DNA of 38,049 nt from positions 1 through 38,049 of IMG/VR virus record IMGVR_UViG_3300042389_000805. One strand, 5' to 3'. Positions 2,984 through 16,648 of the stretch are shown here, one piece after another; the first letter of the stretch is position 1, and each line of letters starts with the position of its first letter. The position numbers were made by a program, and so were the translations under genes. This DNA comes from a virus. A model generated the notes under the pieces. That model did not search any database. It was not told the DNA's origin and saw only the letters and a list, made by a program, of their open reading frames with translations.

Positions 2984-3006
2984 TGTGTTGATTGTGAATA
3001 CTTTAC

Positions 3007-3090
3007 CTACTTTCAGAAGTTTTTGAAAAATAAAAATCAAAAATAATCGAATAAATGTTACCACTTTAATAACTAAGTACCGTATCTTTG
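3007..3090 (+). promoter_or_regulatory. Repeated promoter, copy A (upstream box, TTTCA-N8-TGAAA, TTACC-N20-TATCTTTG)
   Basis: Bacteroidota-type promoter. The -7 box TATCTTTG is at 3083-3090 and a -33-like TTACC at 3058-3062, spacing 20. Upstream, 3007-3037 is a 31-nt box identical to one at 13683-13713 and closely matched at 11870-11898. It contains the inverted repeat TTTCA-N8-TGAAA. Drives the gene at 3141. Confidence 0.8.
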
Positions 3091-3140
3091 TATCACTAAA
3101 GCGCGGTAAGCGTATAAAATCACACTTAAATAAAAATATT

Positions 3141-3560
3141 ATGACAAATTTATCTGAATTTCAACAAGCGGCTGTATTTTCGGTATTGCCAACGATACAC
3201 TGCACTATTTTTGAGCCTACCGATTCCGCTATTGAGTTAGGTTATAAGCGCGTTGTTATGCCTATTGATGAGGGTAGGGCAAAGTGGGAAGAGTATAAAA
3301 ATAACAATATTGATTGTTATTTTTACTATCACGAAGAAAGGTTTCTTTATGAAACATATAATAAGGTGGATGGTTATAGGTTTGGAATTGGATACAAAGA
3401 AGGAACTGGAACATTAGATGTCGTAACAGACGGTAAAGTTTTCATCGTGGGATATGATGCTAATAATTTGCTAATTGGGGAATATCCTAAATACGCATCG
3501 TATCAATACGACACGATAGACCAATGCTTGTGTCATGCAAAAAAAGAAGGGTACTTATAA
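3141..3560 (+). CDS. Hypothetical small protein under repeated promoter A
   Basis: 139 residues, soluble, slightly acidic, no family recognised. ATG preceded by AAATAAAAATATT. It is the only gene between promoter A and the hairpin-rich region ending in the terminator at 3829-3863, so it forms its own transcription unit. Sharing the promoter with the 12008 and 13827 units suggests co-expression with those small accessory genes, plausibly early in infection. Function unknown. Confidence 0.75.
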   Translation: MTNLSEFQQAAVFSVLPTIHCTIFEPTDSAIELGYKRVVMPIDEGRAKWEEYKNNNIDCYFYYHEERFLYETYNKVDGYRFGIGYKEGTGTLDVVTDGKVFIVGYDANNLLIGEYPKYASYQYDTIDQCLCHAKKEGYL

Positions 3561-11841: not shown

Positions 11842-11869
11842 TAAGTTGTTGATAATTAGCACGTTATAA

Positions 11870-11951
11870 ACTTTCAATTGTTTTTGAAAAATAAAAATGA
11901 AAAAAAGTTTATTAAATGTTACCACTTTAATGCGAAGTGGGCGTATCTTTG
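11870..11951 (+). promoter_or_regulatory. Repeated promoter, copy B
   Basis: -7 box TATCTTTG at 11944-11951, TTACC at 11919-11923, spacing exactly 20 as in copies A and C. The upstream box at 11870-11898 keeps TTTCA-N8-TGAAA although the 8-nt centre differs from A and C, which points to selection on the half-sites. Drives the 12008-13019 gene group. Confidence 0.8.
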
Positions 11952-12007
11952 TATCATCAAAAACGCACAGCGCGGTAATTTACTCACTCACTTAAATACT
12001 TAAAATT

Positions 12008-12184
12008 ATGATTTACGCACCAAAAGTAACAGCATATCAAAAAGCACTACATATAATAAGGATTGTTAAAAACGTAGGCAAATCAATTGATTACGCAATT
12101 GATATTGTTGCGTGGTACACAATGACTGACAGCGAGCAAAAAGAGGTGGAGTGTTTAGTCTTGGCAAACTTTAACAAAGTATAA
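12008..12184 (+). CDS. Small hypothetical protein, first gene of the promoter B unit
   Basis: 58 residues, beginning MIYAPKVTAYQKALHIIRI. Leader ACTCACTCACTTAAATAC then TTAAAATTATG. No family recognised. First gene after promoter B, which argues that it is expressed despite its size. Confidence 0.65.
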   Translation: MIYAPKVTAYQKALHIIRIVKNVGKSIDYAIDIVAWYTMTDSEQKEVECLVLANFNKV

Positions 12185-13611: not shown

Positions 13612-13631
13612 GTGAGATTATTTTAATTTTG

Positions 13632-13662
13632 GCCGCTCCGTTGTAAATCGGGCGGCTTTTTT
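13632..13662 (+). terminator. Intrinsic terminator with TTGTAAAT loop, copy 1
   Basis: GCCGCTCC/GGGCGGC stem around the loop GTTGTAAATC, followed by six T. From about 13638 the sequence is identical for 27 nt to the terminator at 16216-16246. Confidence 0.85.
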
Positions 13663-13682
13663 ATTGATTATCAATCGTTTAT

Positions 13683-13776
13683 CTACTTTCAGAAGTTTTT
13701 GAAAAATAAAAATGTAATTTTATGAAAAATAATTGCTTTTTTGTTACCACTTTAATAAAGTAGTACCGTATCTTTG
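13683..13776 (+). promoter_or_regulatory. Repeated promoter, copy C
   Basis: Upstream box 13683-13713 is identical to that of copy A; TTACC at 13744-13748 and TATCTTTG at 13769-13776 with the same 20-nt spacer. Between box and core this copy carries about 10 more bases than A. Drives the 13827-15620 group. Confidence 0.8.
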
Positions 13777-13826
13777 TATCATCAAAAAGCGGTAACGCAC
13801 TCACTTAATCTTAAAATATAAAAATT

Positions 13827-14078
13827 ATGATTTACTTATCAATACCATTCAGCGCAACACACCCAAGGGAAGTAGCAAAACGCACAGGAGCAAAATGGAA
13901 TCCAAATACAAAACTTTGGAGCATTGAAGCAGAAAACGAAAACGAGATTAGCCCAAAATTGCGCCCGTACATTGTTACAAGTAGCACACCAGCAGCCGCA
14001 CCAAAAACAAACCAAGTTGACCAAACCAAAGTTTTTGGCACAATGGACTGGTTAATGAGCGGCATGAATGCAGAATAA
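13827..14078 (+). CDS. DUF5710-like small protein
   Basis: 83 residues. Residues 1-38 (YLSIPFSATHPREVAKRTGA then KWNPNTKLWSI) match the pattern of DUF5710 (YLNVPFxEKDEAKxLGARWDxxxKxWYV), a short domain found in phage and mobile-element proteins, often with DNA-metabolism enzymes. The C-terminal tail is low complexity (PAAAPKTNQVDQT) ending FGTMDWLMSGM. First gene behind promoter C. Domain call from pattern, biological role unknown. Confidence 0.7.
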   Translation: MIYLSIPFSATHPREVAKRTGAKWNPNTKLWSIEAENENEISPKLRPYIVTSSTPAAAPKTNQVDQTKVFGTMDWLMSGMNAE

Positions 14079-15316: not shown

Positions 15317-15441
15317 AAATAAAAACGCCCGACAAATACACAATTTTAACCCTAATCTTTGGCCTAATTGCCGGATTTGGATTAATGGCAATTGGAATTG
15401 CAATAACTAAAATATTTCAATTATGGATTTATCAAAACTAG
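15313..15441 (+). CDS. Small single-span membrane protein
   Basis: 42 residues; central hydrophobic run TILTLIFGLIAGFGLMAIGI. Overlaps the preceding gene by 4 bases and the following one by 19, so its reality rests on tight packing and hydrophobic pattern. Confidence 0.5.
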   Translation: MKIKTPDKYTILTLIFGLIAGFGLMAIGIAITKIFQLWIYQN

Positions 15442-15620
15442 AATTAGGTGAATACTACCGCATAAACGGCACAAAAAAGATTTTATATTGGGACGGCGAA
15501 AAATGGCTAAAACCACAAAAAGATAGCCGTAAAAATTACGGCACATATAACAGCCATTTAGAAAAACAGCCTACTAACATAAAGTCGGTTGAGTTGGTGG
15601 ATATTCGCACCGTTTCTTAA
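15423..15620 (+). CDS. Hypothetical protein
   Basis: 65 residues, basic, beta-like (LGEYYRINGTKKILYWDGEK), no family recognised. Last gene of the promoter C unit; followed by the long non-coding region. Confidence 0.6.
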   Translation: MDLSKLELGEYYRINGTKKILYWDGEKWLKPQKDSRKNYGTYNSHLEKQPTNIKSVELVDIRTVS

Positions 15621-15638: not shown

Positions 15639-15668
15639 TTGCAAAGTGAAAAAATTTACCTACCTTTG
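15639..15668 (+). promoter_or_regulatory. Bacteroidota-type promoter E for a short RNA
   Basis: TTG at 15639-15641, 19-nt spacer, -7 box TACCTTTG at 15661-15668. It faces no ORF; the predicted transcript reaches a hairpin at 15704-15731 within about 60 bases. Confidence 0.65.
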
Positions 15669-15669
15669 C

Positions 15670-15735
15670 AGTACCACTTTTCATGAGATTATATACATGA
15701 GATGCCGCCAATTCAAAAGAGAGTTGGCGGCTATT
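15670..15735 (+). ncRNA. Candidate short RNA between promoter E and hairpin
   Basis: Short transcript predicted from promoter E, containing a direct repeat CATGAGAT (15682-15689 and 15696-15703) and ending in the 8-bp hairpin GCCGCCAA (15704-15711)/TTGGCGGC (15724-15731) followed by TATTTAAAA. The weak T-run means it could instead be a leader reading into the tRNA-like genes. Confidence 0.4.
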
Positions 15736-15740
15736 TAAAA

Positions 15741-15808
15741 CGGGGGTCTAGGAAAGTTTGATTTTGATTAATTAGGCTTTATTTTTGGGTTCGATTCCCA
15801 TGCCTCCA
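15741..15808 (+). other. tRNA-like 3' half (T arm plus acceptor strand), degenerate tRNA or attachment site
   Basis: 15786-15800 is a perfect T arm: TGGG, loop TTCGATT, CCCA. It is followed by TGCCTCCACA like a tRNA or tmRNA 3' end. An upstream CGGGGGT (15741-15747) can pair with GCCTCCA (15802-15808) in six of seven positions, two of them wobbles. No D or anticodon arm can be drawn in the 38 bases between. Such 3' halves are frequent phage attachment cores, but no integrase is seen here, so a decayed tRNA is equally possible. Confidence 0.4.
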
Positions 15809-15880
15809 CATAGGAAATTGAATATAAGTTGTTTATGGGTAAACTAGGCCAATTGTAGCAATATAAGCGGCTTTTAAATG

Positions 15881-15955
15881 ATAGCGGTAGTTCAGATATG
15901 TAGAACATCACTTAATTGGGAGTGAAGGACGAAAGTGCGACTCTTTCCCGTTGTC
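15881..15955 (+). tRNA. tRNA-like gene with an 8-nt anticodon loop (TAATTGGG)
   Basis: Hand fold: acceptor ATAGCGG (15881-15887)/CCGTTGT (15948-15954), all seven pairs including two wobbles; D arm GTTC (15890-15893)/GAAC (15903-15906) with a 9-nt loop lacking GG; anticodon stem TCACT (15908-15912)/AGTGA (15921-15925); loop TAATTGGG of 8 nt; 5-nt variable region AGGAC; T arm GAAAG (15931-15935)/CTTTC (15943-15947) with loop TGCGACT. CCA follows directly (15955-15957). If T16 of the loop region (15916) acts as U33, the anticodon is TGG (Pro) with an extra G. All stems being intact argues against simple decay; function is uncertain. Confidence 0.55.
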
Positions 15956-16024
15956 CAAATAAGACCCGTAACGCCTCTAAATTATGCGCATCGTGGCGGG
16001 TTATTAGATAAAGATTGTTTTCAT

Positions 16025-16080
16025 TTGGTTTTTTGGGGTTTTCCGTCCTGGTGTAAATCGGGACGGTTACCCAAAACCAA
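16025..16080 (+). other. Long hairpin with TGTAAATCGG loop
   Basis: TTGGTTTT (16025-16032) pairs with AAAACCAA (16073-16080), GGG with CCC (16070-16072), then CCGTCC (16043-16048) with GGACGG (16061-16066). The loop carries TGTAAATCGG, shared with the terminators at 13632 and 16216. No T-run follows, so it is not an ordinary terminator; it may be a processing or stability element for the RNAs encoded upstream. Confidence 0.5.
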
Positions 16081-16215
16081 GAAACAAAGAAACACGTATA
16101 AAGAATTGCATTGCTTAAAAAACCTTAGATGTAAATTTAAGGTTTTTACCAGTGCCTTGTATCAATCAAAAAAAGATGTGAGTTTATAAAATATGGTTTT
16201 TCAATTTTTAACTTT

Positions 16216-16246
16216 GCCGCCCCGTTGTAAATCGGGCGGCTTTTTT
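16216..16246 (+). terminator. Intrinsic terminator with TTGTAAAT loop, copy 2
   Basis: GCCGCCCCG (16216-16224), loop TTGTAAAT, CGGGCGGC (16233-16240), six T. Near-duplicate of 13632-13662. It closes the non-coding region before promoter F. Confidence 0.9.
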
Positions 16247-16286
16247 ATACCAAAATTTAGGCAATTACACAAAAAATATCAATCAG

Positions 16287-16336: not shown

Positions 16337-16648
16337 ATGCCAACTATCACACACAAAAGACGCAAAAGGCAGCCGGAAAAGGTAATCAGTAGAAGGGTAG
16401 ATAATTCAGACATTTATAATTCTAGTGAATGGAGGCGGGCGCGTAAAGCGTTTAAGTCGCAAAGAGAAAACGCATTTTGTGTAAAGTGCTTAGAATTGGG
16501 AATATATACGGTCACTTATGCAGTAGATCACATTATACCAATCACGCAGGGCGGTAGCGTTTGGGATAGATCAAACTGGCAGCCTCTTTGTAAAACGCAT
16601 CATAACCAAAAGAGTGGGCGCGAGGCTCACTCCCATTTTGATAGGTAA
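16337..16648 (+). CDS. HNH endonuclease
   Basis: 103 residues from the ATG at 16337; upstream in-frame codons cross promoter F and the terminator, so a longer start is ruled out. HNH core: CVKC (48-51) as first zinc pair, AVDHIIPITQGG with Asp64-His65, WDRSNWQPLC with Asn80, and CKTHHN with Cys85, His88, His89. HNH proteins next to terminase genes in HK97-type phages assist DNA cleavage during packaging, and the position here fits. Basic N-terminal tail (HKRRKRQPEK). Confident. Confidence 0.9.
   Translation: MPTITHKRRKRQPEKVISRRVDNSDIYNSSEWRRARKAFKSQRENAFCVKCLELGIYTVTYAVDHIIPITQGGSVWDRSNWQPLCKTHHNQKSGREAHSHFDR

What the first reader, a model, noticed from the sequence alone, without database searches (positions are those of the whole stretch)
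15881..15955. Nearly perfect tRNA with an 8-nt anticodon loop (TAATTGGG)
All four stems pair completely, variable and T loops have standard length and CCA follows, yet the anticodon loop has one extra base and the D loop lacks GG. Decayed tRNAs usually lose stem pairs first. Eight-base loops are the hallmark of known +1 frameshift-suppressor tRNAs, including tRNA-Pro variants that read CCC-N; TTGGG here would fit a Pro-type anticodon. It may suppress frameshifts, or serve as a decoy for host tRNA-cleaving defence nucleases.
Basis: partly seen in the sequence, partly recalled or inferred. Interest (0 to 1): 0.7.

Follow-up and report, generated by a model that had tools for sequence, protein, structure and literature searches.

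The report
Phage tRNA-like RNA beside antitoxin RNA
The odd tRNA is real but cannot read codons normally; it sits in a phage RNA cassette next to a small RNA of the kind that disarms AbiF, a bacterial suicide toxin, and similar misshapen tRNAs sit beside the same RNA in other phages, which suggests an RNA-based counter-defence.

Summary
The observation largely holds. Window 15880-15955 matches the tRNA family (Rfam 37 bits; own model 40.9 bits, E 2.8e-9), with 21 of 21 stem pairs kept. The 8-nt loop is best drawn as a 6-bp stem with a 6-nt loop (AAUUGG); the loop lacks U33 and the elbow is changed (no GG; U55 to G). Frameshift suppression is not supported.

The surroundings matter more. The tRNA-like RNA lies in a ~600-nt non-coding cassette. 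Its 3' neighbour, 15962-16004, is an abiF-family RNA, below Rfam's cut-off but found with a model built from 61 other phage sequences (41.4 bits, E 1.6e-9). Such RNAs are the antitoxin of the AbiF RNase toxin. In 86 of 87 phage records the toxin domain was not found. Phage abiF RNAs lie next to tRNA genes more often than chance. Among tRNA hits with good anticodon and T stems, non-7-nt loops were 7 of 18 within 62 nt of an abiF RNA against 1 of 87 elsewhere; a small hold-out (1 of 6 against 0 of 26) agreed but was not significant.

Best reading: a non-decoding tRNA-shaped module in an orphan-antitoxin (anti-AbiF) RNA cassette, probably for processing or stability. No function was tested; a relic remains possible.

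The parts
15639..15668 (+). promoter-like site TTG-N19-TACCTTTG (Bacteroidota type, motif recalled)
   Evidence: Only match in the window, expected 0.21 by chance; the -7-like part TANCTTTGNA occurs 8 times against 2.1 expected; kept in all four cassettes
15704..15731 (+). 11-bp hairpin near the transcript 5' end
   Evidence: fold of 15672-16252; kept in four phages
15742..15808 (+). module 1: D-arm-less tRNA-like structure: acceptor GGGGGU/GCCUCC, 11-bp hairpin with 6-nt loop, T arm UGGG-UUCGAUU-CCCA; acceptor resembles the tmRNA end
   Evidence: fold -20.1 kcal/mol, z -1.98; weak Rfam tmRNA match 10.6 bits, E 0.048; R2 14.6 bits, E 0.41; nearly identical in all four phages
15880..15955 (+). 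the finding: tRNA-like gene with 8-nt anticodon loop (6 bp + 6 nt), no D-loop GG, T loop UGCGACU
15962..16004 (+). abiF-family RNA (orphan antitoxin-like)
   Evidence: model R1 41.4 bits, E 1.6e-9; Rfam RF03085 19.7 bits, below cut-off 37
16015..16087 (+). long hairpin of the conserved 3' part
   Evidence: z -5.76; almost unchanged in four phages
16118..16147 (+). 13-bp hairpin
   Evidence: z -4.77
16216..16246 (+). terminator-like hairpin and T run
   Evidence: a 93%-alike copy at 13621-13664

Best explanation
The element is a tRNA-derived RNA that no longer decodes. It is one module of a phage non-coding RNA cassette whose other identifiable module is an orphan abiF-type RNA. The abiF RNA would bind and silence the host's AbiF HEPN RNase during infection, as pseudo-ToxI does against ToxIN (step inferred). 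The tRNA-like modules, which keep acceptor and T arms while losing anticodon-loop and elbow features, would act as processing and stability elements: host RNase P and RNase Z would cut at their ends and free the antitoxin RNA (step inferred; recognition of acceptor and T arm by these enzymes is recalled). Shown here: structure, abiF family membership, toxin domain not found in the phage, clustering of phage abiF RNAs with same-strand tRNA genes. Not shown: transcription, processing, binding, any effect on infection.
For: abiF RNA: R1, built from 61 other phage sequences without the window or its kin, finds 15962-16004; the free pair of the loop is Watson-Crick in 60 of 61 model sequences and 38 of 38 held-out ones, and the window has A-U there. 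Toxin domain PF07751: found in 0 of 7 records, 0 of 40 and 1 of 40; in that one, L203, the RNA lies just upstream of the toxin gene. tRNA neighbourhood: 19 of 80 abiF cores within 300 nt of a tRNA, all 19 on the same strand, against mean 9.7, maximum 16 in 2000 random intergenic draws; in 38 unseen loci 9 within 100 nt, reached by 4 of 2000 draws, 9 of 9 on the same strand. Named phages with abiF RNA inside tRNA clusters: S-SZBM1, Arthrobacter phage Mimi, S-CREM1. Loop aberration concentrated beside abiF: 7 of 18 within 62 nt against 1 of 87. Selective change: all stems kept, while U33, U55 and D-loop GG are lost. In L005 abiF and module 1 persist without the tRNA, which fits a dispensable helper. 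AbiF neutralised in trans by its RNA: PMC12373285 (abstract, passages and first part of the Discussion read).
Against: No expression or processing data. Hold-out for odd loops is 1 of 6 against 0 of 26, not significant, and that one (L226) is a near copy of L147. The distance of 62 nt was chosen after seeing the data; 150 and 300 nt give weaker p (4e-4, 9e-3). L006 has the cassette and tRNA-like genes but no abiF RNA, so the tRNA-like parts are not only for abiF. Most phage abiF RNAs have no ARAGORN tRNA within 300 nt (61 of 80). 25 of 80 cores overlap a crude ORF call of 50 aa or more. The window's outer abiF stem has one mismatch. L005 needs no tRNA next to its abiF RNA.
Confidence: 0.42

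Rival explanations
1. Relic: a tRNA gene of a phage tRNA cluster that lost decoding function and is drifting; its place beside abiF only reflects that abiF RNAs settle in tRNA clusters.
For: Bit score low for a tRNA (37 and 40.9); element absent in L005 and different in L006 and L085; changes in both loops of the elbow; hold-out loop test not significant.
Against: 21 of 21 pairs intact, plus an added U-G closing pair, although at least three highly conserved single-stranded positions changed; random loss should hit stems, which are more than half of the bases. L085's gene in the same slot is also fully paired with an 8-nt loop.
Confidence: 0.28
2. Decoy: the RNA mimics a tRNA to occupy or absorb a tRNA-cutting defence nuclease (AbiF itself, Cas13, PrrC, VapC type), and its altered anticodon arm resists or misdirects cleavage.
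For: Neighbour is an AbiF-type antitoxin RNA; Cas13a, held to descend from AbiF-like proteins, cuts tRNA anticodons (PMC12373285, Discussion part 1); phage tRNAs with anticodon-loop mutations are proposed to evade anticodon nucleases (PMC10264068, passages read) and phage tRNAs help phages evade retrons (PMC11555353, listing and passages read).
Against: Those cases concern working tRNAs; this RNA has no usable anticodon, and the loop sequences of the abiF-side RNAs differ from each other. The target of AbiF is not defined in the part of the paper read.
Confidence: 0.18
3. +1 frameshift suppressor tRNA of proline type reading CCC-N.
For: 8-nt loop counted from a 5-bp stem; GGG in the loop.
Against: No U33, loop ends pair, no bases left for 37-38, elbow altered; other abiF-side RNAs have loops of 8, 9, 14 and 19 nt with unrelated sequence.
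Confidence: 0.03
4. Attachment-site remnant: the tRNA/tmRNA-like pieces are 3' ends of host genes carried by an integrating phage.
For: Module 1 has a weakly tmRNA-like 3' end.
Against: No tyrosine integrase (PF00589) in 4 of 4 records with the cassette (serine recombinases not searched; records may be incomplete); module 1 folds with its own 5' acceptor strand; the 15880-15955 element is a whole cloverleaf.
Confidence: 0.04

Closest known systems
abiF RNA (Rfam RF03085) and the AbiF/RCd22 toxin-antitoxin of Clostridioides difficile (PMC12373285)
   Same: 43-nt abiF motif at 15962-16004 with the same core, inner helix and outer stem
   Different: No AbiF toxin domain found in the phage; a single motif, not two; followed and preceded by other structured modules; loop pair is A-U, the rarest type in the model (2 of 61)
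Cyanophage S-CREM1 tRNA region with annotated abiF sRNA (PMC9964418)
   Same: abiF RNA between tRNA genes
   Different: Its neighbouring tRNAs have 7-nt loops where the model aligned them; the passages read give no link between abiF and tRNAs
Pseudo-ToxI of phage PhiTE (PMC3475682, abstract read)
   Different: Different toxin and RNA family; no tRNA-like parts mentioned in the abstract
SufB2 frameshift tRNA (PMC7803779, passages read)
   Same: One extra base in the anticodon loop
   Different: Here U33, anticodon space and elbow contacts are lost; proline identity not tested
tmRNA tRNA-like domain (RF00023)
   Same: Module 1 lacks a D arm and has a similar acceptor and T arm
   Different: No tag reading frame or pseudoknots recognised; 10.6 bits against cut-off 47

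Membership tests
tRNA (RF00005) | score above the family cut-off | tested here: met
   37 bits against 29; not reported by the default-filter searches
tRNA (RF00005) | four intact stems | tested here: met
   21 of 21 pairs
tRNA (RF00005) | 7-nt anticodon loop with U33 | tested here: not met
   TAATTGGG, folds to 6-nt AAUUGG
tRNA (RF00005) | G18G19 in D loop and UUC in T loop | tested here: not met
   D loop AGATATGTA, T loop TGCGACT
tRNA (RF00005) | charged and used in translation | not testable with these tools
   needs experiment
abiF RNA (RF03085) | Rfam gathering score 37 | tested here: not met
   19.7 bits
abiF RNA (RF03085) | conserved core, inner helix, loop pair and outer stem | tested here: met
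   R1 41.4 bits, E 1.6e-9; A-U at the covarying loop pair; one outer-stem mismatch
abiF RNA (RF03085) | lies upstream of an Abi_2 toxin gene | tested here: not met
   PF07751 not found in G000; the same holds for most phage abiF RNAs examined
type III antitoxin function | binds and neutralises the toxin | not testable with these tools
   needs experiment
+1 frameshift suppressor tRNA | otherwise normal tRNA with one extra loop base next to the anticodon | tested here: not met
   U33 lost, loop ends pair, elbow altered
tmRNA (RF00023), module 1 | score above cut-off | tested here: not met
   10.6 against 47

The most novel reading that the evidence does not exclude
Phages carry a recurrent two-part counter-defence RNA: an orphan AbiF antitoxin mimic joined to a tRNA-shaped, non-decoding RNA that releases it or baits a tRNA-cutting nuclease. 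The placing of abiF RNAs in phage tRNA clusters across Bacteroidota-type, cyanobacterial, actinobacterial and other phages would mean that part of the content of phage tRNA islands is there for defence warfare and not for decoding.
Probability: 0.3. Interest if true: 0.8.

Novelty: new variant of a known kind. Interest (0 to 1): 0.6.

Why it matters
Why phages carry tRNA genes is a long-standing question. If antitoxin RNAs ride in tRNA clusters and some tRNAs beside them have lost decoding features, some phage tRNAs are RNA parts of a counter-defence and not translation aids. It also makes a testable prediction: many phages, including laboratory ones, should resist AbiF, a toxin family held to be ancestral to Cas13.

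Tried and rejected
T4's orphan stable RNAs rnaC and rnaD were tested as possible abiF RNAs: no (best 8.0 bits, E 0.48, outside both genes). Patterns from module 1 and from the A-U abiF core in 84,980 bacterial and archaeal genomes: 0 matches, so neither host nor donor was identified. BLAST of the cassette against named phages gave only chance-level pieces. Loci found with the small upstream protein (L089-L093) have no such cassette at that place: no ARAGORN tRNA, sequences read, no Rfam match. Orthology of the window and L085 tRNA-like genes was tested and not shown (58% identity against at most 61% with unrelated phage tRNAs), so their pair differences were not counted as covariation. tRNA-Gly, -Asp and -Pro parentage, judged by eye from memory, was not tested and is not used. 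A claim that U55-to-G marks abiF-side RNAs was dropped: it also occurs far from abiF (L239; L136). No paper linking abiF RNA with phage tRNA clusters was found in four searches of an open-licence library; that is weak evidence of absence.

Counting notes: one search printed 127 distinct tRNA hits; the loop test kept 105 with at least 4 anticodon-stem and 4 T-stem pairs. The Fisher figure printed used hand-typed counts and is replaced. The loci are not all independent (for example L141, L149 and L197 look alike; L152 and L218 share sequence; L147 and L226 are near copies). One hold-out gene that ARAGORN reads with an 8-nt loop (L221, 71 nt from abiF) fell outside the hold-out count because the model aligned only 3 of its anticodon pairs.

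Full report
What is there. The window is an IMG/VR virus record of 38,049 bases with terminase, portal, capsid and tape-measure genes. The finding lies in a non-coding stretch between a small ORF (15423-15620) and an HNH gene (about 16338-16648). The tRNA-like element scores 37 bits with Rfam tRNA when the region is searched permissively, and 40.9 bits (E 2.8e-9) with a model of 15 other phage tRNAs. ARAGORN and default scans miss it. All 21 pairs of the cloverleaf are standard. The fold reproduces the cloverleaf with an eighth acceptor pair (G15880 with C15955) and a sixth anticodon pair, leaving a 6-nt loop AAUUGG. The D loop has no GG and the T loop reads UGCGACU. From general knowledge of tRNA, loss of U33 and of the usual elbow contacts makes it unfit for normal decoding.

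The cassette. A promoter-like site at 15639-15668 and a terminator at 16216-16246 frame a transcript of about 580 nt that folds far better than shuffles (z -5.5). Pattern and protein scans gave three other phage contigs with the same cassette: L005, L006/L086 and L085/L088. The shared parts align at about 85-95% DNA identity in L005 and L006, but one slot varies. L005 has no tRNA there: blastn jumps from window 15877 to 15957. L085 has a different tRNA-like gene with intact stems and an 8-nt loop. L006 has a CAT tRNA with a normal loop plus a second tRNA-like gene with a 28-nt anticodon region. Upstream, module 1 (15742-15808) is kept in all four: a D-arm-less tRNA-like fold with a tmRNA-like acceptor. 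Its G-U third acceptor pair with A73 recalls the alanine signal of tmRNA; that is recalled and untested.

The neighbour. At 15965-16001 Rfam shows a sub-threshold abiF RNA (19.7 bits, cut-off 37). An exact 19-base core was then found in five viral contigs, three of them unrelated by cassette (L094, L095, L096); one of these passes the Rfam cut-off (39.2 bits), two lie in tRNA arrays. A degenerate core gave at least 120 stretches in viral contigs, the scan stopping at its limit. From the first 80 loci, 61 non-redundant sequences show clear covariation: inner pair 57 of 61, free loop pair 60 of 61, outer stem 70% of cells, covariation score 0.445 against 0.18 in shuffles. Model R1 from these, without the window or its kin, finds the window element at 41.4 bits (E 1.6e-9), L005 at 42.1, L085 at 46.4, L094 at 52.9, L096 at 34.2 and L095 at 30.5, none in L006. 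The loop-pair rule held in 38 of 38 further loci.

What abiF RNA does. In C. difficile the RNA RCd22 carries two abiF motifs and neutralises the toxin AbiF, an Abi_2 HEPN RNase, by direct binding, in cis and in trans; an AbiF of a Prevotellaceae bacterium was solved with its RNA by another group (PMC12373285: abstract, passages and first part of the Discussion read). The Abi_2 domain was found in 1 of 87 phage records examined (0 of 7, 0 of 40, 1 of 40); many of these records are fragments, so absence is not proof. In the one exception the RNA lies just upstream of the toxin gene, which serves as a positive control. Orphan abiF RNAs in phages therefore look like antitoxin mimics, with pseudo-ToxI of phage PhiTE as precedent (PMC3475682, abstract). 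That inference is mine.

Association with tRNA genes. Within 300 nt of an ARAGORN tRNA lay 22 of 85 abiF cores, against a mean of 6.7 for random positions. With a stricter intergenic control it was 19 of 80 against a mean of 9.7 (none of 2000 draws reached 19), all on the same strand. In the 38 unseen loci it was 9, all on the same strand; with the intergenic control 4 of 2000 draws reached that at 100 nt and 49 of 2000 at 300 nt. In named phages the RNA lies unannotated between tRNA-Pro and tRNA-Ala in S-SZBM1 and between tRNA-Tyr and tRNA-Lys in Arthrobacter phage Mimi, and annotated between tRNA-Asn and tRNA-Gly in S-CREM1 (R1 scores 56.1, 36.7 and 49.5 bits). Counter-examples: Aeromonas phage PZL-Ah8 has it between structural genes, and most loci have no tRNA within 300 nt.

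Odd loops. ARAGORN itself gave 5 of 146 tRNAs with non-7-nt loops. With the loop-tolerant model, hits having at least 4 anticodon-stem and 4 T-stem pairs had non-7-nt loops in 7 of 18 within 62 nt of an abiF core and in 1 of 87 elsewhere (p 1e-5). Without the window, L085 and L006 it was 5 of 16 against 0 of 84 (p 6e-5); at 150 nt, 7 of 29 against 1 of 76. The hold-out was 1 of 6 against 0 of 26, not significant. Some of these RNAs also lack a D arm (L141, L197), like module 1. Their single-sequence folding energies are mostly not exceptional, so the structural claim rests on homology.

Reading. The pattern of what is kept (acceptor, T arm, pairing) and what is lost (U33, elbow contacts, sometimes the D arm) suits RNAs that must be recognised by tRNA-processing enzymes but not by the ribosome. 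Because they abut an antitoxin-type RNA on the same strand, I favour processing or stability elements of an anti-AbiF cassette. A nuclease decoy and a drifting relic remain open, and nothing here shows expression. Frameshift suppression is unlikely.

Noticed in passing
L160:7817-7919 (+): Phage abiF RNA directly before what ARAGORN calls a permuted tmRNA (tag ANDDVYTEDFALAA).
   Followed up: no
L006:934-1007 (+): Phage tRNA with CAT anticodon that by eye resembles an initiator tRNA with a T1xC72 mismatch, in the same slot as the window's tRNA-like gene.
   Followed up: partly
window 2988-3144, 11864-12011, 13686-13829: A repeated intergenic element of about 150 bases (72-78% alike) holding TATCTTTGTA promoter-like boxes, also repeated in L005.
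   Followed up: partly
window 13621-13664 and 16206-16248: Two copies of one terminator-like stretch, 93% identical.
   Followed up: no
L263 (Arthrobacter phage Mimi), L262 (S-SZBM1), L260 (Mycobacterium phage Thibault), L259 (Acj61), L261 (PZL-Ah8): Unannotated abiF-family RNAs in isolated phages; BLAST listed many further Mycobacterium phages.
   Followed up: partly
L005:1-3100: Pieces of the window's repeated intergenic element occur several times, in another order.
   Followed up: no
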